Of a DNA stretch of 64,000 nucleotides, positions 1 to 14,411 are shown one piece after another. Every line of letters starts with the position of its first letter. The stretch's first letter is position 1. The notes under the pieces were generated by a model. That model had not been told where the DNA came from. It did no database searches and saw nothing but the letters and a program-made list of their open reading frames with translations. The DNA is from Ochrobactrum sp. RH2CCR150 (GTDB taxonomy: Bacteria > Pseudomonadota > Alphaproteobacteria > Rhizobiales > Rhizobiaceae). The stretch is from the NCBI GenBank assembly GCA_014138095.1, contig JACGXE010000003.1, positions 186,001 through 250,000 of the forward strand, in the 5' to 3' direction. Both the position numbers and the translations under genes were made by a program.

Positions 1-1238
1 TCAACGTACTTAATGACAATACTATATCGTTACCAGATATCCGTTCGCGGAGTGTCGTTCCGTTCAAAGAAATGGGTATCAAGCTAAACTTGTTGGTTAA
101 GATTTTTGATGCAAGTTATACCAAAATAGATCCGAAGGTTTATCCTGGATTTAGTCGGTCTCTAAGGCAACCTTACGGTACAATCCGTGAAGTAATGGAC
201 CGTTTACATTTTTCAGTCCGCCACCTCGTTCCATATATCGTTCTGTTAGGTTTTGAAACACTTTTCAACGCGGAGGGATTACTTGGTTTAACTTGGGCGC
301 AGATCGGTGAACATCCTATTTTTGGTGAGGACCGACTACAGATACGGGTGCCAAAGAACAGGTCGAAATTAGGCGGTAAAGTGATCGGGCCGAACCGCCA
401 GGTGAGATCTTATAGCACCAAGTTGACAGCTTTGGAATCCGTCCCAAATCTTTTAAAGCTTCTGGAACGCTTCACACGATTGACCCGTAATCTGGTGGAG
501 CCGCGAGATGTGGACAAAGTATTCATTTTCTATGCTCATGGAAACAATAAGAAAGATATAAATAAGCATCGAGCGTTCAGGATTACAAATAATTCGACGT
601 CATCAGCTGATTCTCTATGGAGAAATGCATTACAATCATTCATTGACGATAATGAATTGCCACATTTTACTCTAAGAACTTTACGTGCGAGTGGCGGTGA
701 CTTTGTTCATAAGGTTACGGGCGATATGAAGTCGCAGCAACTGGCTTTGGGTCACGCAAACCTTGATGTTACAGCTAAACATTATCGAGGAACAGCAGCA
801 AAAAAGCGGGATGAGGAAGCGCTCTCCAATGCGATGGCTTGGCGGGACCGCTATATCTTTACATACGGTAAGTCAGATTCGAGAAACGGCTTGCTAATGG
901 AAGGAGGACAGAGTGCGGCAACGCCTGGGTTTGGATGTGTTGATCCTTTTAATTCCCCGGTTAGGCACCAGCAATCGGGAAAACTGTGTACGGCTTTCGG
1001 TGCCTGCGCCTCGTGTCCACTCGCATACATCGATAGTGAAAGTCCCCGGGCCTATGCACGTTTGATTCAATTCAAAAATCGTCTTGACGAAGCTCGTATC
1101 GCACTTGAACCGGTCCGCTATCTCGAGAATTGGGCACACCAGTTAAATTCTCTTCAGAAGTATTGGCTGCCGAAATTTACTGAGGCAGTAAGAAATGGAG
1201 ATAATCCAGCATTACCTCCTTTCCCAGAATTGGAGTGA
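1..1238 (+). CDS. Tyrosine recombinase, first of a trio (5' end outside window)
   Basis: The reading frame is open from base 3 without a stop, so the gene begins upstream and about 411 residues are visible. The C-terminal half shows a tyrosine-recombinase catalytic region: TLRTLRASG (box II Arg), LALGHANLDVTAKHYRG (LGH and the Tyr nucleophile). In box I, where TG-R-SE normally supplies the first catalytic Arg, the sequence reads LFNAEGLLGLTW, so that Arg seems absent. After the catalytic domain come four Cys (CVDPF, LCTAFGACASC) that may bind zinc. Four bases separate its stop from the next recombinase start. The arrangement of two recombinases plus a small protein resembles Tn554 tnpABC and the recombinase trios of defence islands. 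Family clear; exact subfamily inferred. Confidence 0.8.
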   Translation, partial: NVLNDNTISLPDIRSRSVVPFKEMGIKLNLLVKIFDASYTKIDPKVYPGFSRSLRQPYGTIREVMDRLHFSVRHLVPYIVLLGFETLFNAEGLLGLTWAQIGEHPIFGEDRLQIRVPKNRSKLGGKVIGPNRQVRSYSTKLTALESVPNLLKLLERFTRLTRNLVEPRDVDKVFIFYAHGNNKKDINKHRAFRITNNSTSSADSLWRNALQSFIDDNELPHFTLRTLRASGGDFVHKVTGDMKSQQLALGHANLDVTAKHYRGTAAKKRDEEALSNAMAWRDRYIFTYGKSDSRNGLLMEGGQSAATPGFGCVDPFNSPVRHQQSGKLCTAFGACASCPLAYIDSESPRAYARLIQFKNRLDEARIALEPVRYLENWAHQLNSLQKYWLPKFTEAVRNGDNPALPPFPELE

Positions 1239-1242
1239 ACGG

Positions 1243-3282
1243 ATGAAAATCTCACACGCAATAGTTGATGAAAAGAATAAATCACCTTTGAAATTGCCTT
1301 TCTTTAAAGATTTATTTGTCTCAAAGAAAAGTCGTTGGGTAGAAACTATATGGTATTTTGATGCTACTACAGCCGGATGTAGAGACGTTGCTCTACACTG
1401 GAAGTTGCCTCTTGCAGAAAGGGGATTTCTGACGGATCAAGAGAACAGAGAGCTATTGGAGCAAGCGAAATGCTTATTCTGGTCAATAATAAAATATAAT
1501 CAGAGAGGTAAAAATCCTAAAGTTGCCACATATCCCAATCTTTTTAGCGCAATAAATTATCTGATAAGGTGGATGGCAGAAAATGGTATAAGTAAATTCT
1601 CGGAGCTTAATCCGACCGTATGCGCTGATTATTTGGATGATATTTCTGATGTTGAACAAAGAAAATGCAGATCAGCCAAAAGCAGCTTAGCGGGTTATGT
1701 GGATATACTTTGTCGAGTATATGAACAGTCTGTTCTTTTTTCGAAAACCCCAGATTTAGTAATGCTGCATCACCCTTTTGGCGGGAGAACTGCTAATGAA
1801 GCGGTGATGAATATTTCTGGGCGCTATGGTGATCGAGGGTTCATACCGCCGGTGCCAGATCCTATTTTTCTAGGTAGTATGAATGTAACTTTACAATGGT
1901 TAGATATTCGATCCGTTGATGTTATTGAATTGCAAGAGATCCATCTGAGAAAAAGAGCGGATGTTGCACATTTAGCATCCAACTCCTACAGTTTTCATAT
2001 AAACAAGGAGCTATCGAAGTATGAGTTCGATTGGCCTTATGCTCCTCACGAAAGCTGGTCACGAACTCTCTCGAAAAATACAGCTATAGATGAGCTTCGA
2101 GATTTATTTGGAAAAGTCAGAGATGCGGCGATAATAGCCATTCAGGGAATGCTCGGGCTCAGAATTAGTGAGATTTGCGGAATTCTCGCTGGCGATATGA
2201 AAGAAGGGGCCCTTTGGCCGAGTTGTGTCAACACATCTCCTTCTATAAGTGGGCTGACCGAACTCTTCCATTTGCGCGGACGGGTATTTAAGCAGCAAGA
2301 TGAGTTTGTAGATGCTACTTGGCTCGCTGGTTCTCGGCCTATGGGGTCGAAATATATCCCACCAGCAGTTAGAGCCATCACAGTATTATGGAGACTTTTC
2401 CAACCTTGGCGAGACTTGGCTAATCGTAAGGAGCTGCTTGTTTCATTAAAAAACGGTCGGGGTTTCCCACGAAATGCAGATTCGATTGATCGGGTCTTAA
2501 GTGGACATCTGCGTGCTTCTCAGAACCGGTGGATCAAAGAGAATGTAGAAATTCCTCCCGAATTACGGTCGTGGCGGGTATCGACGCATCAATGGCGTAA
2601 GAGTTTCGCTAATTATATGGTTCGCACAGACGCTCGTTTGATCCACGGTGTGCGCGACCATTTTAAGCATATGTCGATTGCAATGACAGAGCGGGGTTAT
2701 TTGGGTACAGATCCTGAGATGCTCGGGCTTATTGATGATGAAGCCACCCATGCAGCCTCAAAGTTCATAATTGATGTCGTGAACGGTCGTCCAGCGGCCG
2801 GAAACATGACTGAAAAAATCTATGAAAGGCGGGATGTAATTGAACAATTAATTGGTACTGATGGTACCGAAGACGAGCGTATCTCAAGACTAGCGCGTTT
2901 GCTGAAGGAGGATGACGTCCGTGTCTGGCCGTCACCATGGGGAAATTGCTTATTTCTTTGTGAACGCGCCCGTTGCCACTACGCGGCAAAAGGGAGCTTC
3001 GACCTCAGTGCACGACATCCTCATTACGGCGAGAGACGGCCAGGAGTGTGTTGTGAGTGTGCAAATTTCCTGGTTTTCTCCGATAATCTCGATTTCTGGC
3101 ACGCGAGATATAAAAGAAATTTGGTCGTGTACGAAGCGAATAGAAATGCCGGTGAGTTCGCAGCCTCCGCAGTGGCTGCGAAAGCGGTCCTCACTTCGAT
3201 GGTAATCCTTCAAAGGTTCGGCGTCGAAGCGAACGGGACTTTCGATGAAGTCGGAATGGGGATCCACAATGAGAATCACTAA
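1243..3282 (+). CDS. Large tyrosine recombinase, second of a trio
   Basis: A 679-residue protein. ATG 1243 is chosen because GGAG lies 8 bases upstream and it follows the first recombinase stop by four bases; an ATG at 1195 would overlap that gene. An N-terminal helical, SAM-like DNA-binding part precedes the catalytic domain. Box I is canonical (GMLGLRISEI, catalytic Arg), box II reads STHQWRKSFANYMV, and HFKHMSIAMTERGYLG carries the His and the Tyr nucleophile. A C-terminal Cys/His cluster (CERARCHY and GVCCECANF) is another possible zinc site, paralleling the Cys cluster of the upstream recombinase. Length fits TnpB-like partners of transposition trios. It probably cuts and joins island ends together with the neighbouring recombinase. 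Confidence 0.8.
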   Translation: MKISHAIVDEKNKSPLKLPFFKDLFVSKKSRWVETIWYFDATTAGCRDVALHWKLPLAERGFLTDQENRELLEQAKCLFWSIIKYNQRGKNPKVATYPNLFSAINYLIRWMAENGISKFSELNPTVCADYLDDISDVEQRKCRSAKSSLAGYVDILCRVYEQSVLFSKTPDLVMLHHPFGGRTANEAVMNISGRYGDRGFIPPVPDPIFLGSMNVTLQWLDIRSVDVIELQEIHLRKRADVAHLASNSYSFHINKELSKYEFDWPYAPHESWSRTLSKNTAIDELRDLFGKVRDAAIIAIQGMLGLRISEICGILAGDMKEGALWPSCVNTSPSISGLTELFHLRGRVFKQQDEFVDATWLAGSRPMGSKYIPPAVRAITVLWRLFQPWRDLANRKELLVSLKNGRGFPRNADSIDRVLSGHLRASQNRWIKENVEIPPELRSWRVSTHQWRKSFANYMVRTDARLIHGVRDHFKHMSIAMTERGYLGTDPEMLGLIDDEATHAASKFIIDVVNGRPAAGNMTEKIYERRDVIEQLIGTDGTEDERISRLARLLKEDDVRVWPSPWGNCLFLCERARCHYAAKGSFDLSARHPHYGERRPGVCCECANFLVFSDNLDFWHARYKRNLVVYEANRNAGEFAASAVAAKAVLTSMVILQRFGVEANGTFDEVGMGIHNENH

Positions 3283-3739
3283 GAAAGTAAAGGAACAAAA
3301 GTCTGATGCCGAGATTGCATTAATGCAGGCTCTTAATCGGATAAAAAGTGGTAACCCGAGAGATGACCGAAATGTTGCGCTTGCAAACCGGGGCTGTTTG
3401 CGCGTTACTATTACTACAGTTGCGCGCGAAGCAGGTAGAAGCAGAACATTAATCGGCTCCGCAAATTGCCGGTTTCCCGAAGTTCGGGAAGCAGTATTGG
3501 CGGCAATGAACAAGGGTCTTTTGGACGAGCGTCCACCATCAGCTGCAGAACTCGTCAAACTTCTTCGTGAGGATAAGGTAATCCTTGAGCGTCATGTTAG
3601 CGTTCTGGCTACACGCTTGCACGATGCATCGTTACACGTTTGGGAGCTGGAAAAGCGCTGCGAACGGCTGGAACATGAGCTCGCCCAAGCATGTGTGAAG
3701 TTGGGTAAAAGGAACTCGTTGTCCGAAGTGAAACTCTAG
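3269..3739 (+). CDS. Small helical third protein of the recombinase trio (TnpC/DUF6262-like)
   Basis: About 156 residues from ATG 3269 (GGGGAT upstream); an ATG at 3245 is possible but lacks a good ribosome site. It overlaps the end of the second recombinase by 14 bases, so the three are translationally coupled. The middle part (VTITTVAREAGRSRTLI) looks like a helix-turn-helix. The last 60 residues are heptad-rich (ILERHVSVLATRLHD..., WELEKRCERLEHELAQA), suggesting a coiled coil. Position, size and architecture match the accessory third gene of Tn554-like trios, which influences the orientation or efficiency of integration. Function inferred from position. Confidence 0.6.
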   Translation: MRITKKVKEQKSDAEIALMQALNRIKSGNPRDDRNVALANRGCLRVTITTVAREAGRSRTLIGSANCRFPEVREAVLAAMNKGLLDERPPSAAELVKLLREDKVILERHVSVLATRLHDASLHVWELEKRCERLEHELAQACVKLGKRNSLSEVKL

Positions 3740-3831: not shown

Positions 3832-3977
3832 GAGGCCCTTTGCTCGGCGCTAATAAGATTTGCTATTTTCATTTATCTGTTGCTTGGGTTGCGAACAGGA
3901 AGGCTCTTTGCGCCTTACTAAGCCCGAATAAATGATGGAAGATGGCGTCCAGTTTGCGTGATCGAATCGGAGGGGGC

Positions 3978-5324
3978 ATGACCGGTTATTGGAAAAAAAA
4001 GACGGGTATGGCCGAGTATTTGCGTTTATACACGCGCGAAGACAGGTGGCTCGCTTGGGAAGACCTACCTGCGGATCCCAACCAACCAAGTAGCAGGACA
4101 ATCCCTGGAGCGAAAAACAGGGTTGGAGAGACGCTTCGCAATGCCTTCAATTCTACAAATGTCGTATTTCTCTTGGGGTCGGGCGCATCTTTCTCCGCTG
4201 TGAATTCTAGCGGCGCTGAGGGGCAAGCCCCTGGCATGGCGACACTGTGGAGAGCTGTCCGCGATAAAATTGACAAAGAAAAACTTAAAAACGGCCAAAG
4301 CTTCGACGACATCGCCGAAGAATTACTCGGCATGCCGCCGCCTAAACCGGATGACACAAGTGCAGGCAATATCGAAAAGCTGCTCAGTCTCTGCAAAATG
4401 AAGCTGGAGTTGCTAAGCGTTAGGGCCACTGACGAACAATTTCAGCAGCCGGATTCTGAAGTCTCGATACTTACAGATTTCATTTCGAAAGCCGAAACCG
4501 CTATTCTGAACGAGGTTGGTTTCGTGGATGAGAAAACATCCCTGCCCGCTCATTCGAATTTGCTGAGAAAGTTTTCAAAGCGAAGTGCTGAGAAACCGCG
4601 CGTAAAGCTGTTTACAACCAACTATGATCTTTGTCTGGAAGAAGCTGGAGCGCGGCTAGGCATTGTTTTTATTGACGGATTTTCACATAGTGCCGAACAA
4701 CGTTTCAATAGAGATTATTTTCAAACAGATATCGTACGAAGGTCATCGTCTGGGACAAAGTCCGATTACATCGACAGCGTTTTTCATTTGTACAAAATGC
4801 ATGGCTCCGTCGACTGGAGGCGACGATCAGGTGGTGCAGTTATTCGGCAAGCTAAAGGCGAAGGAAATGACCTAACTCCGGTTCTGATCTATCCGAGGTC
4901 TACAAAGTATCAAGAGGCTTTCGAAACTCCTTATCTGGATATGTTTGCCGCGTTTCAATCTGCATTAAGAGAGCCAGATACTACTATCTTCATCGCAGGT
5001 TTTGGCTTCGCAGACGATCATATAAGCTCACCGATCTGGTCAGCCGTAGAATCCAACCTTTCGCTGAAGTTAATACTCGTTGACCCTGGGTTTGTCGCAG
5101 AGCAGCAGTTGGATGACATTCAACCAGAACACGCTTTGAAAGCAGTAGGTTCGCAGCTGAATAAATATCAAGCGCGATTGATGCGCTTGGTCCAGCAGGG
5201 AGACACCAGACTAACTATACTGAACGGTCGCTTCGAAGATATGATAGACGCGATTCCTTCCGTATCCGGTGAAACCGACCGCCAGAGGCTTCTAATGCGC
5301 TTGGAAGAACTGGGTGGCGTGTAA
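3978..5324 (+). CDS. SIR2-family NADase of a SIR2-HerA defence pair
   Basis: From ATG 3978 (GGAGGGGG just upstream) the protein has 448 residues; an ATG at 3942 has a poorer ribosome site. SIR2 features are clear: VVFLLGSGASFS (about residues 62-73) for nucleotide binding, KLFTTNYDLCL (about 210-220), KMHGSVDW with the likely catalytic His near 275, and a late FIAGFGFADDHI typical of the SIR2-like group used in defence. In the known SIR2-HerA (Nezha) systems the SIR2 protein degrades NAD+ upon phage infection, assembled with a HerA ATPase. The stop overlaps the HerA ATG by one base (TAATG), implying coupled translation. Biochemistry is from the family, not shown here. Confidence 0.88.
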   Translation: MTGYWKKKTGMAEYLRLYTREDRWLAWEDLPADPNQPSSRTIPGAKNRVGETLRNAFNSTNVVFLLGSGASFSAVNSSGAEGQAPGMATLWRAVRDKIDKEKLKNGQSFDDIAEELLGMPPPKPDDTSAGNIEKLLSLCKMKLELLSVRATDEQFQQPDSEVSILTDFISKAETAILNEVGFVDEKTSLPAHSNLLRKFSKRSAEKPRVKLFTTNYDLCLEEAGARLGIVFIDGFSHSAEQRFNRDYFQTDIVRRSSSGTKSDYIDSVFHLYKMHGSVDWRRRSGGAVIRQAKGEGNDLTPVLIYPRSTKYQEAFETPYLDMFAAFQSALREPDTTIFIAGFGFADDHISSPIWSAVESNLSLKLILVDPGFVAEQQLDDIQPEHALKAVGSQLNKYQARLMRLVQQGDTRLTILNGRFEDMIDAIPSVSGETDRQRLLMRLEELGGV

Positions 5325-7108
5325 TGATTGCAACAAACGATTATGCGTTGATCGATCCCAATAAACGTGTCGGAACCGTAACCCGGGTGGGGGCCGCGTC
5401 TGTTGAACTGACGGTTCCGCTTGGTTTGGCCATTAGCGGACAACGGGGACTCGCCAAAGGAACTACAGGTGACTTCCTTTTTATTGATTGCGATGCAGCC
5501 ATAGTGTTCGGTCGTTTGACTGAAGTCATCGTTCCGGAGCGACAACGCTCAGCGTTAGAGCGTCAACTGGACCAGGAAATCGTTACCGATCCTCAAGGCC
5601 GCGCCCAGTTGTTGGCCACAATTGATAAAACGACGAAAGAGGTGTCTCGCGGCATTAATACCCAGCCGAGGATCGGAGACAGCGCTTATTTGGCCGAGGG
5701 GCAAGCGCTCGCGTCAGCAATCCAATGTGCTCTTTCAGGGGAGACAAAAGAAGGGAAAGGAGCAGAACGCCTCATCGAGTTGGGACGCCTTTCTGGACTA
5801 AATGACGCCCATATTATGATCCCGCCGGAAAAACTGTTTGGCAGGCATTGCGGCATATTTGGAGCAACAGGTGGTGGGAAAAGCTGGACAGTATCGCGGC
5901 TAGTCAACGAAGTGGTGCGCCTCAAAGGCAAATGTATATTGTTCGACCCAACTGGTGAGTTTGAGGGGAAAATTACTGGTGCAAAAGAATACCGTTTCTC
6001 GAAGGGCGATGCAGAACACCCGCTTGTAAGATTTCCTTACAAACATCTTTCGGAAACTGATTTGTATGGTCTCTTGACGCCATCAACACAAATGCAAGGT
6101 CCAAATTTACGAAGCGCCATTAAGAATCTCAGACTAGCGGCGCTATTACAGCGTAATCCGCTAAGGTTTAGTGCAAAAAAGCAGGATAATGGCAACACAA
6201 TATACTTAGAAGAGAACAATCATTTCATAGAAATAAGGGAAAGTGGAACGATCAGAAAAATTGGGCGAAGTCGGAACGTCATCAGCAAGGCCCTGATCAA
6301 TTATTCTTCCGAGCTGGACTCGCAATTCTGCGATTTCGATATTCACCTACTTTCTGCCCAAGTGCGAGAGGAATGCGTCAAGCACAGTTCTCAGGACGCT
6401 AACGCTAATGGATTCTACGGCAAGGTAGATGATGCGGCACTAGGGTTCTGTAACTCGTTGAATGTCAGAATCGAAAATTATCTTTCATCATCAGAAATGA
6501 AGTGCATCTTCTCCAACGAAGGAGAAGATGTGTGCGAAATTATTAAGAATTTCATTCAAGATCCAAAACAGAACGCGCTTTTGTTATCGTTTGAACACGT
6601 TAGTTTCAAATATAATACTCGCGAGATATTGCTCAATACCATCGGTAGATATCTCCTCAATTTGGCGCGAGAAGAAGCGTTTAAAGAGTGCCCGCTTATT
6701 TGTTTCCTGGACGAGGCTCATCAATTTGTGGGCCGTTCAATAGGCGATGAGACTAATCGTGTGTCACTGGATGCATTCGGCTTGATTGCGAAAGAAGGCA
6801 GAAAATATGGTCTAACGGCTGCGATTGCCACGCAACGACCGAGAGATGTTCCGACCGACGTTTTAAGCCAGTTAGGAACACTTTTTGTACATCGCCTCAC
6901 CAATGATCGCGACCGGGAGACAATTGAAAGAGCATGCGGCGATCTAGATCGTGATGCGGCCGCGTTCATTCCATCGCTGGCTCAAGGTGAGGCAATCATT
7001 GTCGGCCCCGATCTTCCTGCACCTTTACCAGTAATTATAACTCACCCAGAAAAGGCTCAGCAGCCACAATCGAAAGGACCAGATTATCAGAAGCATTGGG
7101 GGAGCTAA
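5324..7108 (+). CDS. HerA/FtsK-type ATPase of a SIR2-HerA defence pair
   Basis: 594 residues. The N-terminal about 100 residues (RVGTVTRVGAASVELTVP...) resemble the HerA HAS-barrel. Walker A is GATGGGKS (about 180-187) and Walker B is LICFLDEAHQFV (about 458-469). AIATQRPRDVPTDVLSQLG and FVHRLTNDRDRETIERA resemble the sensor and arginine-finger parts of HerA. HerA-type motors form hexamers on DNA. Paired with a SIR2 protein they form a large antiphage complex, here as a two-gene unit with a one-base overlap. The pair sits immediately behind recombinase genes, the usual position of defence cargo. Confidence 0.88.
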   Translation: MIATNDYALIDPNKRVGTVTRVGAASVELTVPLGLAISGQRGLAKGTTGDFLFIDCDAAIVFGRLTEVIVPERQRSALERQLDQEIVTDPQGRAQLLATIDKTTKEVSRGINTQPRIGDSAYLAEGQALASAIQCALSGETKEGKGAERLIELGRLSGLNDAHIMIPPEKLFGRHCGIFGATGGGKSWTVSRLVNEVVRLKGKCILFDPTGEFEGKITGAKEYRFSKGDAEHPLVRFPYKHLSETDLYGLLTPSTQMQGPNLRSAIKNLRLAALLQRNPLRFSAKKQDNGNTIYLEENNHFIEIRESGTIRKIGRSRNVISKALINYSSELDSQFCDFDIHLLSAQVREECVKHSSQDANANGFYGKVDDAALGFCNSLNVRIENYLSSSEMKCIFSNEGEDVCEIIKNFIQDPKQNALLLSFEHVSFKYNTREILLNTIGRYLLNLAREEAFKECPLICFLDEAHQFVGRSIGDETNRVSLDAFGLIAKEGRKYGLTAAIATQRPRDVPTDVLSQLGTLFVHRLTNDRDRETIERACGDLDRDAAAFIPSLAQGEAIIVGPDLPAPLPVIITHPEKAQQPQSKGPDYQKHWGS

Positions 7109-7420
7109 ATGGCGAACGGCTGATAACCCGGACCCCAATTTTTCAGCCCCATTTTATGTATGGCGTCAATTTTATGATGGCCGCTTTAGGCGACGGAACT
7201 GGTCTTTACATCCATGGTGTGGCTGAACCGTGCGTCGCAAAAAGATCCTGTTGTCTTCGCTATCCGCGTTCTATCTTATTCTCGTAGTGACGGCCTCAGC
7301 GTTACAACTTTAACGCAATATATAGTGGACAAGGGTCCTGCAAGGTGCTGCTGCTATAGAATAGGCCGATAGACTCACAATTAATGCTATTCGCCACTGG
7401 CGTCGATCACGGGGGGATTC
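7109..7420. other. Gene-free spacer after the SIR2-HerA pair
   Basis: No convincing coding sequence is seen: a 63-codon frame here lacks a ribosome site and has no family features. The right end carries a strong GGGGGG ribosome site for the next gene and presumably its promoter. No clear terminator hairpin was found after HerA. Confidence 0.5.
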
Positions 7421-8473
7421 ATGGCGCGGACGCTTTTACTGACAAAATTCAAAAATTTATCGCTTAACGATCCATTCTTCGACAGTCTGAAGGCGGGCTA
7501 CGACGAATTCCCGGTTTGGTTTAACGCCAAGGCAGAAGAAGACGTTTATGTCGTTGTAGATGAGCATGATCATCTTAGCGGCATGATCTATCTGAAGTCG
7601 GAACACGGCGCTGTTACCGACGTTGATCCGCATCTTTCCGATGGTCACTGGCTGAAAGTGGGTACGCTGAAAATTGAGGGCAAGGGGACTAAGCTCGGCG
7701 AACGAGTCATCAAGAAAATATTCGACACGGCTTTAGATGTCGGGGCAACCGGAATTTATGTGACAGTGTTCGATGTACACGAAAGCCTGATAAACTTGTT
7801 TACTCGTTATGGCTTTGAACAGACTGGTACTAAAACAACAAAAAACGGCGTCGAACTGGTTTTGTCTCGTTCGTTAACAGACCACTCACCGGATACGTTG
7901 AAATCCTACCCATTCATTAGAATTTCGGATGCAAAGCTATGGCTTCTAGCAGTTTATCCAGAATTTCATTCACGTTTCTTGCCAGATTCTATTCTTAACA
8001 ATGAACCCAAAGAGATCGTTCAGGACGTTTCCTATACAAACACCATTCACAAAATCTATGTCGCAAAGTTGCCGCTAACTCGTATGAAAAAGGGAGATGC
8101 GGTTATTATGTACAGGACATCGGACAACAAGGGACCAGCATTTTACCGTTCGGTCGCGACTTCAATTTGCGTTGTGGAGGAAACCCATCGACGAAAAGAT
8201 TTTGCTTCCCTCGATGATTTCCTTGAGTACACCAAACCGCACAGCGTCTTTACTGAGGACGAGCTTAAAGACATGTACGTCTCATGGAGCAGGCTCTATA
8301 CAGTGAAGATGACCTATAATGTTGCATTTAATAAGCGGATCACACGCGGAGACCTCATGGAGCAGGCCGATGTACCAGAGCAGCCGCGTTGGGATTTAAA
8401 GCCTTTGAGTGAGGCTCAATTCCAAAAGATCATCGAATTGGGGAAAGTCCATGAAGGTATTGTTATCGATTAA
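7421..8473 (+). CDS. GNAT acetyltransferase fused to a C-terminal PUA/EVE-like domain
   Basis: 350 residues, ATG 7421 preceded by GGGGGGATTC. The N-terminal about 150 residues are GNAT-like: central strands around VYVVVDEHDHLSGMIYL, the acetyl-CoA region LKIEGKGTKLGERVIKKIF, and a terminal FTRYGFEQTGTKTTKNGVE. The C-terminal about 190 residues (IHKIYVAKLPLTRMKKGDAVIMYRT..., FYRSVATSICVVEE) have the look of a PUA-like fold (EVE/ASCH/YTH relatives), which bind modified bases or RNA. The next gene, an ASCH protein, starts inside the end of this one, so they are translated together. The substrate is unknown; nucleic acid or a nucleotide is likely from the fused domain (inference). Confidence 0.72.
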   Translation: MARTLLLTKFKNLSLNDPFFDSLKAGYDEFPVWFNAKAEEDVYVVVDEHDHLSGMIYLKSEHGAVTDVDPHLSDGHWLKVGTLKIEGKGTKLGERVIKKIFDTALDVGATGIYVTVFDVHESLINLFTRYGFEQTGTKTTKNGVELVLSRSLTDHSPDTLKSYPFIRISDAKLWLLAVYPEFHSRFLPDSILNNEPKEIVQDVSYTNTIHKIYVAKLPLTRMKKGDAVIMYRTSDNKGPAFYRSVATSICVVEETHRRKDFASLDDFLEYTKPHSVFTEDELKDMYVSWSRLYTVKMTYNVAFNKRITRGDLMEQADVPEQPRWDLKPLSEAQFQKIIELGKVHEGIVID

Positions 8474-8870
8474 TCCAGAGCACGTTGAAAACATCTTCAA
8501 GGGCGTGAAAACATTCGAATTTAGAAGAAAAGTCTTCGCACGAAAAGATGTTACAACGGTGGTCGTTTATTGCACAATGCCCGTCGGGAGAATTGTCGGA
8601 GAATTTGATATTGATACAATATTGGAGGACGCACCCGATGAAATCTGGGAGAAAACTCATTCAGGTTCTGGCATCACAAAAGATTTTTTCGATCAGTATT
8701 TTTCTGAACGAAAGATTGCTTACGCTTTAAAAATAGGGGAAGTTCGTGAATATGAGGAGTACATTGATCCAAAAGAAGTTTTGGATAATTTCACGCCCCC
8801 TCAATCTTATATGTACATGAAGGACGAGCGGAGAAAAGCCGGATTTCATGATCAACTAGCGTTCTGGTAA
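8451..8870 (+). CDS. ASCH-domain protein
   Basis: 139 residues from ATG 8451, chosen because GGGGAAAG lies just upstream and MKVLLSINPEHVENIFKG is the standard start of this family; the frame is open further upstream but lies within the preceding gene. ASCH domains are PUA-like; typical features are IFKGVKTFEFRRK near residue 17-29, VVYCTMPVGRIVGEFDID, and a terminal APQS-like PPQSYMYM. One ASCH enzyme, E. coli YqfB, removes acetyl from N4-acetylcytidine and uses Lys and Thr from a KT motif; a KT is present here too. It overlaps the GNAT-PUA gene by 23 bases and the next gene by one base. Confidence 0.82.
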   Translation: MKVLLSINPEHVENIFKGVKTFEFRRKVFARKDVTTVVVYCTMPVGRIVGEFDIDTILEDAPDEIWEKTHSGSGITKDFFDQYFSERKIAYALKIGEVREYEEYIDPKEVLDNFTPPQSYMYMKDERRKAGFHDQLAFW

Positions 8871-9403
8871 TGCTCAATACGAAACTTATAATTGTATTCG
8901 GTGTGTCCGGTATCGGAAAAACTACGGCGTGTGCAAACTATGCCAGCCGAAATAGCAACGTTGCACATTTCATGGCGAGCGCCCTCCTAAGTCTCCATCG
9001 CGAGACTGCGGGTACCCGAACCATAGACAAGGCGATGCAGGATCAGCGGCTTCTCGTGGATTTGGTCTGCACCCTCCGGTTGGAGACTCAGGCGTCAATA
9101 CTGCTTCTGGACGCTCATAATCTTATTGTCGTGGCAGGATGCGAGATTGTTATACCTGTGAATATAATCGCCGCCATGAAGCCAACTGGTCTGATTTTTT
9201 TTAGAGCTAATGGCACGATAGTTTCTAGTCGTCGTGTCTCGAGGGGGGACACTAAAGACGTTAGCTCTGGAGAAATCGAAAGATTACAAATGAATGCATT
9301 AAAAGCAGTCAAATCATACGCCAACCAAATTCCGTGCCCACTCGCAATAGTCGATGCCGATCAGGGCATTGATTTGTCGGACGCGATAAGACGCCTATCG
9401 TGA
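8870..9403 (+). CDS. Adenylate-kinase-like P-loop NTPase
   Basis: 177 residues beginning at the ATG of a TAATG overlap with the ASCH gene. Walker A is FGVSGIGKTT (residues 10-19). The central ILLLDAHNLI is a Walker B/substrate-side strand as in small nucleotide kinases, and the following GLIFFRANGTIVSSRRVSR resembles the Arg-rich lid region. The length and order fit a P-loop nucleoside/nucleotide kinase or AAA_17-like NTPase rather than an AAA+ motor. No substrate can be read from the sequence. Third member of the overlapping triplet; its 3' end overlaps the convergent GNAT gene by 43 bases. Confidence 0.7.
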   Translation: MLNTKLIIVFGVSGIGKTTACANYASRNSNVAHFMASALLSLHRETAGTRTIDKAMQDQRLLVDLVCTLRLETQASILLLDAHNLIVVAGCEIVIPVNIIAAMKPTGLIFFRANGTIVSSRRVSRGDTKDVSSGEIERLQMNALKAVKSYANQIPCPLAIVDADQGIDLSDAIRRLS

Positions 9404-9951
9404 ATGGGGTCTAGAATTTTGCTTTGTCTATTATTTGCGAAAATCGCGTTATTGTAGCCTATTTCTTGCCTGCCCGGAACGTACAGGCCGTTTTCCACGC
9501 CCGTCAGCTTAAACCCGTACCAATCAAATATTCTCTCAAAAACGGGCAATTTTTCTGCACTGACCGTCAATCCTGGTCGGTCGTCATCGAGCCATCTCAA
9601 TAGACCGTCGAATACCTTCAGACCCAAGCCTCGTCCGGCATGATGAGGTGCTACGCGAACGGTACAAATCTTTCGCTCGAATCCATCGTTCTTCGCAATC
9701 CCAACCGCGACCAACTTTCCGTCGCGGTAAAAGGGGAGCAAAAACCTTGTTCCTGTCCGAAGTCCCGGAACCACCTTTTGGAGATACCAATTTTGAATGT
9801 CCGGATAGTCTTCTGACAAAATACCTATGAACTGCAGCGCCTCCTGTTCACCAGAAGAAAGGGGAAGGCTGCGTATGGTTTGGGTATCAAGTGGCAGCGG
9901 AATCGAGGAGGTTCTATTTTCATTGAAGACCATAATCGGGATGTTCCTCAT
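9361..9951 (-). CDS. GNAT-family acetyltransferase
   Basis: 196 residues. The acetyl-CoA binding segment is VRVAPHHAGRGLGLKVFDGLL (read as R-x-x-G-x-G/A with minor change), followed by LPVFERIFDWYGFKLTG, the usual GNAT strand 6-7. Its ATG overlaps the stop of the upstream membrane-protein gene by four bases (ATGA), so the two form a translationally coupled pair. The extreme C-terminus runs into the convergent P-loop NTPase gene. The substrate is unknown; the neighbour gives no hint beyond a membrane location. Confidence 0.75.
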   Translation of the reverse strand: MRNIPIMVFNENRTSSIPLPLDTQTIRSLPLSSGEQEALQFIGILSEDYPDIQNWYLQKVVPGLRTGTRFLLPFYRDGKLVAVGIAKNDGFERKICTVRVAPHHAGRGLGLKVFDGLLRWLDDDRPGLTVSAEKLPVFERIFDWYGFKLTGVENGLYVPGRQEIGYNNAIFANNRQSKILDPIHDRRLIASDKSMP

Positions 9952-11045
9952 TCTTTGTTTAGATAACCGACGTCAGAACCGCCCTCTACAGCAGCCGCAA
10001 CTCCGCCTGAAAACCACGGTGTAACGCAAGAAGCTGCCAAGTTACCGAGCAAACCGAAGAAAAATGCAACGGCCAAATAAGTCAACAAAATCTTACGGCC
10101 GCTCCTGCGAGTGTGTAGTTTTACGAAAGATGAGAAATCTGCAACGCCGGTTCCGTCTTTGCTCTCCTTCTTCCAATGATAAACGACCATTCCGCCAGGA
10201 ATCCCGCTGGGCACGTATTCGTTCCAGGGATCGTGTTCAAGAAGTCGGTTCTTATGCCATTGTATGCTGCTGGCTGACAGCTCGGAATGAACCGGGAAAG
10301 CTGTAAGAAATGCCACGAGATTGATATTGATCTTGCCTTGCTTCTCGTCAGCGCGAATCTTATTCTCAACCTGTGGCGGCAGTGTACGAAGCTCATTGAA
10401 ACGAAAGTCAATATACTCGATTTCCTCGAACCCACTTTGAAATTTACGGTCGAGCGGCGTTATGACGTGGATGAAAGGGCTGGATTTCCCACTGGGCAGA
10501 TAGATTCTCAGCCTGAAGTAAATACTTTCATCGGCCTTGATTTGATCGCTAACAGAATCGATAGCGGCCCTCTCGATTGAGAGGAGGGTTCCGTCAGAAA
10601 ATTTTTCCAAGGAAAGGTGGGATGCGTCTAAATAGCCGCCCTGCTCGATAAATTTGTGAACCCGGCAAAACAGGTTGTCGCCATTTTTTAGCTCAATCCG
10701 CGCAGGAGCCGGTGTAACAACGCATTGGAGCTTTTCGTTGAAAATGCCTTGCGCAACTGACGTTTGGGCCAGCTGGACGCCCGCGTCTTGTATCGACTTT
10801 CTCTCGACATCAACTGGCAAGTAAATATTTATGCGCTCTATAGATGCGGGATTCTTGATTAGTAGACCAATCTCAAGGAAGTCTCTCGCGGGGCATTGAG
10901 GACGCCCTTTGAAATCCTTATCTCCAGCGATGCGCCAGAAATTAAAGTGCGTTTCCATATTGGTGCTCGCGACGTCTCCGTTGGCGAGACACCAAACCGC
11001 CATGCTGCCCGCTTTTTCCTGCTGCTTATTTTTACTTGTTTCCAC
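9948..11045 (-). CDS. Unknown protein with single C-terminal transmembrane helix
   Basis: 365 residues from a GTG start at 11045 with GGGGG six bases upstream; an internal Met at residue 15 is an alternative. No family recognised. The first about 300 residues look globular and soluble with mixed strands and helices. A single hydrophobic helix (ILLTYLAVAFFFGLLGNLAAS, about residues 318-338) sits near the C-terminus after a basic stretch (KLHTRRSGRK), predicting a tail-anchored protein with the bulk in the cytoplasm. No signal peptide. Coupled by a four-base overlap to the downstream GNAT gene. The location next to defence genes suggests, but does not show, a defence role. Confidence 0.6.
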   Translation of the reverse strand: METSKNKQQEKAGSMAVWCLANGDVASTNMETHFNFWRIAGDKDFKGRPQCPARDFLEIGLLIKNPASIERINIYLPVDVERKSIQDAGVQLAQTSVAQGIFNEKLQCVVTPAPARIELKNGDNLFCRVHKFIEQGGYLDASHLSLEKFSDGTLLSIERAAIDSVSDQIKADESIYFRLRIYLPSGKSSPFIHVITPLDRKFQSGFEEIEYIDFRFNELRTLPPQVENKIRADEKQGKININLVAFLTAFPVHSELSASSIQWHKNRLLEHDPWNEYVPSGIPGGMVVYHWKKESKDGTGVADFSSFVKLHTRRSGRKILLTYLAVAFFFGLLGNLAASCVTPWFSGGVAAAVEGGSDVGYLNKE

Positions 11046-11275
11046 CGCAATCCCCCGCGCGATTCGAATCTGTTGAGTGTATTTCTAACTCAAACGCTAC
11101 CGTTCGGGCATGAAAATCGATCACTCTTAGACAAGTTGCACTCAGGCGGAATAAGATTCGGCCCTCCAAGGCGGCTGCATAATGAGCAAAATTGACGAGC
11201 ATTGCTCTTCAGTTGGATTCCGGTTGTTGGCGATGCTCTGACTATAGTTGCAGCCTTAATGCGTGAACTCGGTTA

Positions 11276-11313
11276 TTGACCTTTTCCATATATCCGGTAT
11301 TATAGATATATGG
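11276..11313 (+). promoter_or_regulatory. Promoter-operator of the first ars operon
   Basis: TTGACC (11276-11281), 16 bases, TATTAT (11298-11303). A perfect 9-bp inverted repeat CCATATATC/GATATATGG (11286-11294 and 11305-11313, 10-base centre) embraces the -10 box. It ends inside the arsR start codon region, so ArsR binding would block RNA polymerase. A start of transcription about seven bases after the -10 box would coincide with the arsR ATG at 11310, and no ribosome site precedes that ATG, so the mRNA is probably leaderless. Confidence 0.7.
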
Positions 11314-11663
11314 AAAACGAAGACGCAATTGCAGCACTGGCTGCCCTCGCTCAGTCAACACGGCTCGACACATTCCGCCTGCTGGTGAAGCATGAACCTG
11401 ACGGTATTCCGGCAGGGGAACTGGCACGCATTCTGGATGTTCCGCAGAACACAATGTCGGCGCACCTTGCGACGTTGTCGCGTGCAGGCCTCGTAAGGGG
11501 CGAACGTCAGAGCCGCTCGATCATCTATCGCGCTGATCTCGACCGATTTCGAGAACTGACCCTTTTCATGATCAAGGACTGCTGTGGCGGCAGTGCCAAG
11601 CTCTGCGCACCTCTTATAAAAAGCCTGACACCCTGTTGCGAACCAAAAACGGCCACCCAGTAA
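11310..11663 (+). CDS. arsR: ArsR-family arsenic-responsive repressor
   Basis: 117 residues with a winged helix-turn-helix (ELARILDVPQNTMSAHLATLSRAGLV, about 38-63; wing GERQSRSIIYR). The As(III) site is not the alpha-3 CVC of plasmid R773 ArsR but Cys pairs behind the HTH: Cys91-Cys92, Cys99, and Cys109-Cys110, as in the C-terminal-site ArsR type. It represses the operon and dissociates when As(III) or Sb(III) binds. First gene of a five-gene arsenic operon, probably translated from a leaderless message. Confidence 0.9.
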   Translation: MENEDAIAALAALAQSTRLDTFRLLVKHEPDGIPAGELARILDVPQNTMSAHLATLSRAGLVRGERQSRSIIYRADLDRFRELTLFMIKDCCGGSAKLCAPLIKSLTPCCEPKTATQ

Positions 11664-11706
11664 CACAAGGCCGCTGAATTCGGCCTTACACAAACGGACT
11701 GATAAA

Positions 11707-12234
11707 ATGACGGATCGGGTCTACAACGTGCTCTTCTTGTGCACGGGCAATTCCGCACGCTCAATTTTGGGCGAGGCAATTCTGAACAAAGACGGCGAAG
11801 GACGTTTTCACGCCTATTCGGCTGGTAGTCGGCCAAAAGGCGACGTTCATCCTCTCGCAATCAAGGAACTGGACGCTCTCGGCTATTCCATCGAGAACCT
11901 GAGCTCAAAAAGCTGGGACGTGTTTTCAGGTACCGACGCCCCTCAGATGGATTTCATTTTCACGGTCTGTGATAACGCTGCCGGAGAAGCCTGTCCTGTC
12001 TGGATTGGCCATCCGATGACAGCCCACTGGGGCATTGAGGATCCTGCCGCTGTCGAAGGTAATGAAGCAGAAAAACAGCGCGCCTTTGCACAGGCGGCCC
12101 GTTTTCTGAAGAACCGAATATCAGCATTCCTGAGCCTTCCCCACGCCATGATAGACCGCATGGCGCTTCAAAATCATCTGAAAGAAATCGGCACCATGGA
12201 AGGTAGCACACAGACAAATGTGGAGAATAACTGA
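11707..12234 (+). CDS. arsC: Arsenate reductase, low-molecular-weight phosphatase type
   Basis: 175 residues. LFLCTGNSARS (Cys12) is the CX5R P-loop of the low-molecular-weight tyrosine-phosphatase fold, with further Cys88 (FTVCDN) and Cys96 available for the disulfide relay of the thioredoxin-coupled ArsC class. SAGSRPKGDVHP is also typical. It reduces arsenate to arsenite for export by the next gene. Its stop overlaps the acr3 ATG by one base (TGATG). The C-terminal tail after about residue 150 is longer than the 130-140-residue standard enzyme. Confidence 0.87.
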   Translation: MTDRVYNVLFLCTGNSARSILGEAILNKDGEGRFHAYSAGSRPKGDVHPLAIKELDALGYSIENLSSKSWDVFSGTDAPQMDFIFTVCDNAAGEACPVWIGHPMTAHWGIEDPAAVEGNEAEKQRAFAQAARFLKNRISAFLSLPHAMIDRMALQNHLKEIGTMEGSTQTNVENN

Positions 12235-13292
12235 TGTCCACATTCGAACGTTATCTGACTGTCTGGGTGGCTCTTTGCATTGTTGCAGGCGTAGCTCTTG
12301 GACATTTCTTTCCGACACTATTTCATGCAATCGGCTCTGCTGAAGTCGCCAAAGTCAACATTCCAGTCGCCATTCTCATCTGGCTCATGATCATTCCCAT
12401 GTTGCTGAAGATCGATTTCAGCGCATTGAGACAGGTCACTGAGCACTGGCGTGGCATCGGCGTCACGCTCTTTATCAATTGGGCCGTCAAACCGTTCTCT
12501 ATGGCACTTCTCGGTTGGCTATTTATCGGCTGGCTGTTTCGCCCTTATCTTCCTGCAGACCAGATCGATTCCTACATTGCTGGACTGATTATTCTGGCGG
12601 CCGCCCCCTGCACGGCAATGGTGTTCGTCTGGTCCAACCTGACCAAGGGCGAGCCGCATTTCACGCTGTCGCAGGTCGCACTGAACGATGCGATCATGGT
12701 TGTGGCATTTGCCCCTATCGTCGGACTACTGCTCGGACTGTCGGCAATTACTGTCCCGTGGAATACGCTCGTTCTGTCGGTTGTCCTCTATATCGTCATT
12801 CCGGTGATTATCGCGCAAATCCTGCGCAGAAGTATTCTCGCCAGCGGTGGAGAACGAGCTTTCGATGTAATGCTCAGAACACTACAGCCGCTGTCCCTGA
12901 TTGCGCTTTTGGCGACACTTGTTCTGCTATTCGCATTTCAAGGAGAGCAGATCATCGCACAGCCCATGATCATTGCGATGCTGGCCGTCCCGATCCTCAT
13001 CCAGGTCTATTTCAACTCTGGCCTCGCTTATCTGTTGAATCGCATTTCAGGCGAGCAACATTGCGTCGCCGGTCCCTCAGCTTTGATTGGTGCATCCAAC
13101 TTCTTCGAGCTGGCAGTAGCAGCAGCAATCAGCCTTTTCGGCTTCTCATCTGGCGCGGCGCTCGCAACAGTGGTTGGCGTTCTTGTTGAAGTGCCCGTCA
13201 TGCTCTCGGTCGTCTGGATCGTGAACCGCTCAAAGGGTTGGTACGAACGCGGTTCCAATCAAAAGCCAGTCACCGAAACAGGAAAACTCTGA
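12234..13292 (+). CDS. arsB: Arsenite efflux transporter, ACR3 family
   Basis: 352 residues, about ten transmembrane helices. IWLMIIPMLLKIDF is the ACR3 signature, and LAAAPCTAMVFVWSNLTKG carries the conserved Cys in the fourth helix that is needed for arsenite transport. ALNDAIMVVAFAPIVG follows as in other members. It exports arsenite across the inner membrane using the proton gradient. It overlaps both neighbours by one base, so it is firmly part of the operon. It is ACR3 rather than the unrelated E. coli ArsB family, although such genes are often called arsB. Confidence 0.93.
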   Translation: MSTFERYLTVWVALCIVAGVALGHFFPTLFHAIGSAEVAKVNIPVAILIWLMIIPMLLKIDFSALRQVTEHWRGIGVTLFINWAVKPFSMALLGWLFIGWLFRPYLPADQIDSYIAGLIILAAAPCTAMVFVWSNLTKGEPHFTLSQVALNDAIMVVAFAPIVGLLLGLSAITVPWNTLVLSVVLYIVIPVIIAQILRRSILASGGERAFDVMLRTLQPLSLIALLATLVLLFAFQGEQIIAQPMIIAMLAVPILIQVYFNSGLAYLLNRISGEQHCVAGPSALIGASNFFELAVAAAISLFGFSSGAALATVVGVLVEVPVMLSVVWIVNRSKGWYERGSNQKPVTETGKL

Positions 13293-13705
13293 TGTCAGTT
13301 ACGATCTATCACAATCCGAACTGTGGCACGTCACGCAACACATTGGCGTTGATCCGTGCCAGCGGCGAAGAGCCTGTCGTCATCGAATATGTGCAAAATC
13401 CGCCGTCGCGAGAACGACTGGTTGAATTGCTTCGAGCAATGCAGATGACGCCTCGCCAACTCCTTCGCGAGAAAGGCACACCATATGCCGAACTGGGATT
13501 GTCCGATCCCAAATGGACCGATGATGAACTGGTCGACTTCATGATGGCGCATCCTATCCTGATCAATCGCCCAATCGTGGAAACACCGCTTGGCATCAAA
13601 CTGTGCCGTCCGTCAGAACTGGTTCTCGACATTCTGGAAAACCCGGTGTCGTCATTCACCAAAGAGGACGGAGAAGTCATCACCTATGAAAGAAAGTCCC
13701 GCTGA
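13292..13705 (+). CDS. arsC: Arsenate reductase, glutaredoxin-dependent type
   Basis: 137 residues from ATG 13292, which overlaps the acr3 stop. Upstream in-frame ATG at 13238 lies within acr3 and is rejected. [18 protein letters not shown] carries the catalytic Cys (residue 11) of the Spx/ArsC thioredoxin-like fold, and [18 protein letters not shown] the conserved R-P-I motif region. It reduces arsenate with glutathione and glutaredoxin. The operon thus encodes two unrelated arsenate reductases. Confidence 0.93.
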
Positions 13706-14411
13706 CATGGACCTGCCGAACCTCGATCAGAATTCCTTCGCATTGCCAGACCTCGATGCTCTACGTGCCGACTTTCCAAAGCATAAGCCTCGTATCCTTT
13801 TGCTCTATGGCTCACTTCGTGATCGTTCCTATAGTCGGTTTCTGACCCTGGAAGCGCAGCGCCTTCTCGATGCGATGGGTGCTGAAACGCGTGTCTTTCA
13901 TGCCAATGGTCTTCCTTTGCCAGACGATGGTTCGGCAGAGCATCCGAAGGTTCAGGAATTGCGTGAGGCAATGCTTTGGTCAGAAGGGCAAGTCTGGACC
14001 AGTCCAGAACGTCATGGAGCCATGAGCGCTGTCATGAAATCGCAGATCGACTGGATTCCTTTGCCAGGTGGAGCAATTCGTCCGACGCAGGGCCGAACTC
14101 TGGCCGTGATGCAGGTTTCAGGGGGATCGCAGAGCTTCAACGCTGTCAATCAGATGCGCATTCTGGGGCGCTGGATGCGAATGATCACCATTCCAAACCA
14201 GTCATCCGTCGCAAAGGCGTGGCAGGAATTCGACGACGCTGGACGGATGAAATCCTCATCCTTCTATGATCGCGTAGTGGACGTAATGGAAGAACTGATG
14301 AAGTTTACACTTCTGACGCGTGGCATCTCGGATCATCTCACAGACCGTTATAGCGAGCGTAAGGAAGAAGCGGCCAAACTCGAAAAGCGTGTTTCGTTGA
14401 AATCAATATGA
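13686..14411 (+). CDS. arsH: ArsH NADPH:FMN oxidoreductase (organoarsenical oxidase)
   Basis: 241 residues from ATG 13686, or 234 from ATG 13707 two bases after the arsC stop; the sequence does not decide. A flavodoxin-like fold: [13 protein letters not shown] for the FMN phosphate, [18 protein letters not shown] and [19 protein letters not shown] typical of ArsH. ArsH oxidises trivalent methylated and aromatic arsenicals to the less toxic pentavalent forms. Last gene of the operon, convergent with the second arsR and separated from it by a hairpin. Confidence 0.92.

What the first reader, a model, noticed from the sequence alone, without database searches (positions are those of the whole stretch)
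7421..9403. Overlapping GNAT-PUA / ASCH / P-loop kinase triplet: candidate undescribed acetyl-base module
Seen: three genes with 23-base and 1-base overlaps, encoding a GNAT fused to a PUA-like domain, an ASCH protein with a KT motif, and an adenylate-kinase-like NTPase, next to a SIR2-HerA pair behind recombinase genes. Known: the ASCH enzyme YqfB hydrolyses N4-acetylcytidine; PUA-like domains read modified bases; GNATs can acetylate nucleotides, tRNA-bound amino acids or proteins. Inference: one enzyme acetylates a base or nucleotide, the ASCH protein reverses or reads it, and the kinase handles the nucleotide, as a defence or toxin-antidote unit.
Basis: partly seen in the sequence, partly recalled or inferred. 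Interest (0 to 1): 0.72.

Follow-up and report, generated by a model that had tools for sequence, protein, structure and literature searches.

The report
Five-gene acetyltransferase toxin-antitoxin defence cassette
The three overlapping genes belong to an already described bacterial acetyltransferase toxin-antitoxin family, but here they travel as a five-gene cassette with a second acetyltransferase and a membrane protein of an unnamed family, which may be a new part of a phage-defence system.

Summary
In detail: GNAT-EVE (7421-8473), ASCH (8451-8870) and an adenylate-kinase-like protein (8870-9403) overlap by 23 and 1 bases, behind SIR2-HerA. "Undescribed" is wrong: Bell et al. 2020 (PMC7641849, passages) describe (PIN)-GNAT-EVE + ASCH + AAA_17 operons as predicted toxin-antitoxins; PADLOC lists the pair as PDC-M11A/B; GenBank PV340567 names phage homologues GevT toxin/GevA antitoxin. 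The acetyl-eraser idea fails on residues: YqfB's Thr24 is Glu in 86 of 86 family ASCH proteins.

A standalone GNAT (9361-9951 -) and a protein with a C-terminal membrane segment (9948-11045 -), unmatched in Pfam, NCBIfam and the PDB, recur beside these genes in many gene orders across three phyla. Membrane-protein-first searches found no isolated copy: 7 of 7 plasmid records have GNAT-EVE beside it; 6 of 6 genomes have ASCH and kinase, 2 of them without a detectable GNAT-EVE. Against Rhizobium paknamense, the whole window's DNA similarity is confined to 7411-11027, the five genes. Neighbours are rich in defence genes.

Most likely an extended GevTA-type abortive defence module; the toxin chemistry and the membrane protein's role are inferred.

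The parts
7421..8473 (+). GNAT-EVE protein P0001 (350 aa), GevT/PDC-M11A family; predicted acetyltransferase toxin with a C-terminal PUA/EVE-like reader
   Evidence: PADLOC PDC-M11A E 2.5e-126; PHROG 6345 E 6.2e-130; 45% identical to GevT of phage PhiR47_2; acetyl-CoA loop is the non-canonical G-T-x-L-G-E-R
8451..8870 (+). ASCH protein P0004 (139 aa), GevA/PDC-M11B family; predicted antitoxin/nucleic-acid reader
   Evidence: PADLOC PDC-M11B E 1.5e-48; 5gus/5guq E about 5e-10; invariant K20, E23, R25, Y40, T42, P44 in 86 of 86
8870..9403 (+). Adenylate-kinase-like P-loop protein P0002 (177 aa)
   Evidence: AAA_17 E 4e-7; Walker A lysine in 63 of 64 and His of a D-x-H motif in 64 of 64 relatives
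9361..9951 (-). Standalone GNAT P0003 (196 aa), fourth component; tail overlaps the kinase gene by 43 bases
   Evidence: Acetyltransf_1 E 2.3e-5; profile homology to the GNAT half of P0001, hhalign E 2.5e-7; found in 4 of 397 genomes of the order at E<=1e-20, the same 4 that hold the membrane protein
9948..11045 (-). Protein P0007 (365 aa, GTG start as listed) with one predicted C-terminal membrane segment, fifth component; family without a name in Pfam, NCBIfam, or a PDB relative
   Evidence: no Pfam/NCBIfam/PADLOC match up to E 0.1 for P0007; 28-member family without a consistent match; hydrophobic segment 319-337; adjacency counts
3942..5324 (+). Neighbour, not part of the unit: SIR2 protein
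   Evidence: PADLOC SIR2 E 3.2e-84
5324..7108 (+). Neighbour, not part of the unit: HerA ATPase
   Evidence: PADLOC HerA E 3.9e-146

Best explanation
The finding is the three-gene arm of a five-gene mobile cassette, window 7421-11045, that extends the known GevTA / (PIN)-GNAT-EVE-ASCH family. Shown: the five gene families recur together in shuffled orders, move as one block, and sit among defence genes. Inferred: the GNAT-EVE protein is a toxin whose EVE-like half brings the acetyltransferase to a modified nucleic acid (aminoacyl-tRNA is the most likely carrier of the acetylated amine, by analogy with GNAT toxins); ASCH is the partner that binds the same kind of ligand and holds the toxin in check; the kinase-like protein and the second GNAT adjust or duplicate the acetylation step; the membrane-anchored protein is a sensor or effector that couples the module to the membrane. 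Release during phage infection would stop growth of the infected cell.
For: Family identity. Five-gene unit: searches started from the membrane protein gave 4 of 397 genomes of the order and 4 of 385 of the class, 6 distinct genomes, all 6 with ASCH and kinase beside it; 7 of 72,556 plasmid records, all 7 among the 31 GNAT-EVE records with the two genes within 2 kb; of 38 distinct full-length membrane-protein loci, 38 have a GNAT-EVE or standalone GNAT within 5 kb, 37 ASCH, 35 GNAT-EVE, 28 kinase, 24 standalone GNAT (most of these were found through GNAT-EVE). Cassette: the whole 64-kb window is similar to the R. paknamense locus L015 only at 7411-11027; two Bradyrhizobium loci share one block, L017 9094-12717 against a system at 9139-12775. 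Kinase and standalone GNAT tails overlap in 16 of 16 convergent loci examined (L204 repeats L015). Defence neighbourhood: against control. Toxin/antitoxin naming by the depositors of PV340567.
Against: No experiment was seen; the paper behind the GevT/GevA names was not found. The GNAT half of GNAT-EVE has a non-canonical acetyl-CoA loop. Most GNAT-EVE loci lack the two extra genes (membrane protein in 18 of 80 genome loci, standalone GNAT in 11 of 80), so they are not needed for the core. No membrane-protein match in the 50,697 phage records with the one query tried. Two genomes hold the other four genes without GNAT-EVE (L193, L194), so GNAT-EVE is not indispensable to the set.
Confidence: 0.5

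Rival explanations
1. Base-modification module: one or both GNATs acetylate a base in DNA or RNA, EVE and ASCH read it, and the kinase handles a nucleotide; ASCH is not the eraser but the reader.
For: EVE and ASCH belong to a superfamily that binds modified bases (passages); HTH-ASCH proteins (263 aa) occur in rhizobial loci; ASCH pocket residues Y40, T42 and S119 are kept in 86, 86 and 85 of 86.
Against: No direct evidence for base acetylation. YqfB's catalytic residues are absent from ASCH. Phage copies next to cI carry only GNAT-EVE and ASCH, which fits a toxin pair at least as well.
Confidence: 0.2
2. The membrane protein and standalone GNAT are a separate small defence system that is merely often inserted beside GNAT-EVE/ASCH in defence islands.
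For: They sit on the opposite strand here; most GNAT-EVE loci lack them; two genomes have the set without GNAT-EVE.
Against: Several distinct gene orders, including membrane protein - standalone GNAT - GNAT-EVE - kinase in one direction (L202) and membrane protein - GNAT-EVE - ASCH in viral contigs; no membrane protein found away from these families; overlapping gene tails; the whole cassette is the unit of DNA similarity.
Confidence: 0.12
3. The module serves the mobile element rather than the host: superinfection exclusion or protection of the element from restriction, as Bell et al. suggest for prophage GNAT-EVE.
For: GevT/GevA lie beside cI in PhiR47_2; 80 viral-contig loci were returned for GNAT-EVE; plasmid and transposon contexts.
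Against: Here and in many relatives it lies in chromosomal defence islands; defence carried by mobile elements does not exclude benefit to the host.
Confidence: 0.12
4. ASCH is the toxin: an RNase like the Zymomonas ASCH protein, with GNAT-EVE as its inactivating partner.
For: Nearest solved relative is that RNase; its Tyr47 and Ser128 are kept in 86 and 85 of 86.
Against: Its Lys53 is Gly in 76 of 86; the depositors of PV340567 call the ASCH protein the antitoxin.
Confidence: 0.06

Closest known systems
(PIN)-GNAT-EVE / ASCH / AAA_17 operons, predicted toxin-antitoxin (Bell et al. 2020, PMC7641849; passages read)
   Same: Domain order GNAT-EVE, ASCH partner, AAA_17-type kinase-like protein, mobile/defence context.
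   Different: The passages returned for acetyltransferase, AAA_17, transmembrane and membrane protein mention no standalone GNAT and no membrane protein as partners; the figures are not held.
GevT/GevA of Escherichia phage PhiR47_2 (GenBank PV340567, annotation seen)
   Same: 45% identity of the GNAT-EVE protein, same 23-base overlap with ASCH.
   Different: Only two genes, beside cI in a lambda-like prophage; no kinase, second GNAT or membrane protein there.
PADLOC candidate PDC-M11 (A and B)
   Same: Best model for both proteins, E 2.5e-126 and 1.5e-48.
E. coli YqfB, N4-acetylcytidine amidohydrolase
   Same: ASCH fold; Lys21 and Arg26 positions kept.
   Different: Thr24 is Glu and Glu74 is absent in 86 of 86 (the Glu74 column is less surely aligned).
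GNAT toxins of the TacT/AtaT kind (recalled; cited in Bell et al.)
   Same: GNAT as predicted toxin in a two-gene overlap.
   Different: Antitoxin is ASCH rather than a small DNA-binding protein, and the GNAT carries an EVE-like domain.

Membership tests
(PIN)-GNAT-EVE/ASCH toxin-antitoxin family (GevTA, PDC-M11) | GNAT fused to a C-terminal EVE-like domain | tested here: met
   PADLOC PDC-M11A E 2.5e-126; EVE itself only sub-threshold in Pfam and weak by profile
(PIN)-GNAT-EVE/ASCH toxin-antitoxin family (GevTA, PDC-M11) | ASCH gene directly downstream, overlapping | tested here: met
   23-base overlap here and available in 70 of 73 pairs
(PIN)-GNAT-EVE/ASCH toxin-antitoxin family (GevTA, PDC-M11) | often an AAA_17 ATPase beside | tested here: met
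   P0002 AAA_17 E 4e-7; kinase in 34 of 80 genome loci
(PIN)-GNAT-EVE/ASCH toxin-antitoxin family (GevTA, PDC-M11) | GNAT-EVE toxic, ASCH neutralises | not testable with these tools
   only the GenBank product names say so
YqfB-type ac4C amidohydrolase | catalytic Thr24-Lys21-Glu74 with Arg26 | tested here: not met
   Thr24 is Glu in 86 of 86, no Glu at the Glu74 column; Lys21 and Arg26 kept
ZmASCH-type RNase | Tyr47, Lys53, Ser128 | tested here: inconclusive
   Tyr 86 of 86, Ser 85 of 86, Lys53 position Gly in 76 of 86
Archaeal-type adenylate kinase (PRK04040) | score above the curated cut-off | tested here: not met
   37.5 bits against 155; P-loop and D-x-H kept
Known membrane-effector families (Pfam, PADLOC, PDB) for P0007 | profile match | tested here: not met
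   no match for P0007; over 28 members only single or double weak hits such as CARF_TM E 0.0063 in 2 and RTasSLATT E 0.033 in 1

The most novel reading that the evidence does not exclude
A five-component membrane-coupled immune system in which two related GNATs (one with an EVE reader), an ASCH reader and a kinase make or gate an acetylated nucleic-acid signal, and the P0007 family is a previously unrecognised membrane effector or sensor triggered by it; the four-gene form without GNAT-EVE (L193, L194) would be its minimal version.
Probability: 0.25. Interest if true: 0.75.

Novelty: new variant of a known kind. Interest (0 to 1): 0.5.

Why it matters
GNAT-EVE/ASCH modules are widespread, phage-borne and still without a mechanism in any paper seen here. 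If a second acetyltransferase and a membrane protein are regular parts of one branch, the system is not just a two-gene toxin-antitoxin pair: it gains a candidate sensor or effector from a family with no annotation, and the four-gene form without GNAT-EVE shows which part may be dispensable. Both make the question of what these enzymes acetylate directly testable by single-gene deletions.

Tried and rejected
Of their 12 loci, 8 repeat contigs or queries already known through GNAT-EVE; newly found are L204, L209, L210 and L213, and L204 is identical to part of the R. paknamense locus L015. L204 and L213 end at the contig edge beyond ASCH, so GNAT-EVE cannot be judged there.

Rejected: ASCH as an ac4C eraser. 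Rejected: the idea that the two minus-strand genes are chance neighbours. Not pursued: a name for the soluble part of P0007; PADLOC's weak CARF_TM and RTasSLATT hits look like membrane-segment matches but this was not tested. Contig-length likeness between the window's contig (515,770) and a R. paknamense contig (515,818) was noticed and dropped: flanks share nothing. The neighbourhood control comes from four genomes only, and families, not proteins, are counted.

Literature. Iyer et al. 2013 is not held and is known here only through Bell et al. Paper texts were seen as passages only; the rest as listings.

Full report
Observation. The three genes exist as written, with 23- and 1-base overlaps. 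P0001 matches PADLOC PDC-M11A over nearly its whole length (E 2.5e-126) and P0004 matches PDC-M11B (E 1.5e-48). P0002 is an AAA_17/adenylate-kinase-like P-loop protein. SIR2 and HerA precede them, after three tyrosine-recombinase-type genes and a small protein (the naming of the recombinases rests on one weak Phage_integrase match, and on reading the sequence).

What is known. Bell et al. 2020 (PMC7641849; passages) describe a GNAT-EVE fusion, often with an N-terminal PIN domain, almost always with an ASCH gene and often with an AAA_17 ATPase, treat it as a toxin-antitoxin system, and cite Iyer et al. 2013 for the proposal that it acetylates a DNA base. In GenBank PV340567 the homologues beside cI of a lambda-like phage are named GevT toxin and GevA antitoxin, overlapping by the same 23 bases. 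So the trio is a member of a described family. The paper behind the GevTA names was not found.

The ASCH protein. Against E. coli YqfB (sequence), the family keeps Lys21 and Arg26 in 86 of 86 but has Glu for the nucleophile Thr24 in 86 of 86 and no Glu at the Glu74 column (the paper's active site from passages). The nearest solved relative is the Zymomonas ASCH protein, reported as a ssRNA ribonuclease; its Tyr47 and Ser128 are kept (86 and 85 of 86), its Lys53 is Gly in 76 of 86. A nucleic-acid-binding partner is likelier than an acetyl eraser.

Two more genes. P0003, a standalone GNAT (9361-9951 -), is a profile-level relative of the GNAT half of P0001 (hhalign E 2.5e-7) and, unlike it, has near-invariant glycines in a canonical acetyl-CoA loop (24 of 25 at two positions). 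P0007 (9948-11045 -) has a predicted C-terminal membrane segment; 41 of 42 family entries have one (the window's protein counted twice; the exception is the truncated L077). P0007 has no match in Pfam, NCBIfam or PADLOC up to E 0.1, its 28-member profile has none in the PDB below E 1, and members hit library families only singly and weakly, or CARF_TM in 2 of 28 at E 0.0063. Records annotate it as hypothetical protein where they annotate it.

Linkage, started from GNAT-EVE. One genome scan returned the best 80 of 147 confirmed loci: ASCH in 79, kinase in 34, membrane protein in 18, standalone GNAT in 11; all 11 with the standalone GNAT also have membrane protein and kinase. Short loci make these lower bounds, and the 80 are the closest relatives, not a random sample.

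Linkage, started from the membrane protein. In 397 genomes of the window's order there are 4 hits, in 385 of the class 4; 6 distinct genomes, the window's own included. All 6 have ASCH and kinase beside it, 5 the standalone GNAT, 4 GNAT-EVE. In G555 and G136 (L193, L194) the other four genes stand without GNAT-EVE, and no GNAT-EVE was found in those genomes at E<=1e-20 (G555; G136). In 72,556 plasmid records two queries gave 7 records, all 7 among the 31 with GNAT-EVE, within 2 kb. The phage collection gave none with one query. Viral-contig scans gave 12 loci, 4 of them newly found, all 12 with ASCH. Started from the standalone GNAT, 5 of 397 genomes hit; 4 are the membrane-protein genomes and the fifth (E 7.6e-9) overlaps a GNAT-EVE gene. 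Leaving out the window's own genome, the same 3 of 396 genomes hold both genes, chance 1e-7 if independent (arithmetic).

Gene orders. In 38 distinct full-length membrane-protein loci I see GNAT-EVE>ASCH>kinase> <GNAT <membrane (this window and other alphaproteobacteria); kinase>GNAT-EVE>ASCH>GNAT> <membrane (Pseudomonas, Erwinia); GNAT-EVE>ASCH>membrane; GNAT-EVE>membrane divergent from a PIN-type GNAT-EVE/HTH-ASCH operon (rhizobia); membrane>GNAT-EVE>ASCH (viral contigs); kinase>GNAT-EVE>ASCH..membrane>GNAT (Paenibacillus); membrane>GNAT>GNAT-EVE>kinase> <ASCH (Nitrosophilus plasmid). All 38 have a GNAT-EVE or standalone GNAT within 5 kb; 37 have ASCH within 5 kb, and the exception, L027, has one slightly further off.

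A cassette. Compared with the R. paknamense locus L015, the whole 64-kb window is similar only at 7411-11027, in three pieces. Two Bradyrhizobium loci share one block that matches the five genes to within about 60 bases at either end; a third comparison (L018/L196) likewise; L017/L196 are closer (93%) and share about 0.7 kb more on one side. Kinase and standalone-GNAT tails overlap by 4-74 bases in 16 of 16 convergent loci examined.

Neighbourhood. Of 219 neighbour ORFs from 32 membrane-protein loci, 100 drawn at random matched 151 PADLOC families at E<=1e-15, among them type I restriction and methylase, Argonaute, GajB, AbiEi, RmrA and HerA; 100 of 134 ORFs from 16 random stretches of four genomes matched 8. 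Families are redundant and proteins were not counted, so this is a contrast, not a rate.

Mechanism. Shown: family identity, five-gene linkage, cassette behaviour, defence context. Inferred: toxicity, antitoxin role of ASCH, acetylation of a nucleic-acid-linked amine, and the membrane protein as sensor or effector. I commit to an abortive, acetyltransferase-based defence module of the GevTA kind with a membrane-coupled extension (0.5).

Limits. EVE assignment rests on weak profile evidence plus the literature; no structure could be modelled; taxonomic class names of some hosts are recalled from genus names.

Noticed in passing
window 72-3739 (and 5301 onward in L195): Three tyrosine-recombinase-type genes in a row plus a small coiled-coil-like protein directly precede SIR2-HerA, like a recombinase-trio element with defence cargo.
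   Followed up: partly
window 11310-14411: By reading the ORFs, an arsenic-resistance-like run (ArsR-like, arsenate reductase-like, Acr3-like, ArsH-like) follows the cassette; not searched against any library.
   Followed up: no
L027, L029, L031-L033, L203, L035: Rhizobial loci carry two GNAT-EVE genes: a PIN-GNAT-EVE with HTH-ASCH next to or divergent from a plain GNAT-EVE followed by the membrane protein; L035 (Yoonia) has a third GNAT-EVE-like ORF.
   Followed up: partly
L193 8231-10923 and L194 8361-10988: Four-gene form (membrane protein, standalone GNAT, kinase, ASCH) without GNAT-EVE, beside a type I restriction-like gene and Fic-like gene (L193) or a 1965-aa helicase-like protein (L194) (names by reading).
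   Followed up: partly
L202: Nitrosophilus labii plasmid: the five genes lie between an N6-DNA-methylase operon and a Tn7-like TniQ/TniB/TnsA set.
   Followed up: no
L011: Roseomonas mucosa plasmid: GNAT-EVE/ASCH followed by multiubiquitin and ThiF-family genes.
   Followed up: no
L200, L025: GNAT-EVE genes without a detected ASCH neighbour.
   Followed up: no
NZ_CP134663.1 in the plasmid collection: A 4.9-Mb Escherichia coli record is listed among plasmids and is probably a chromosome.
   Followed up: no
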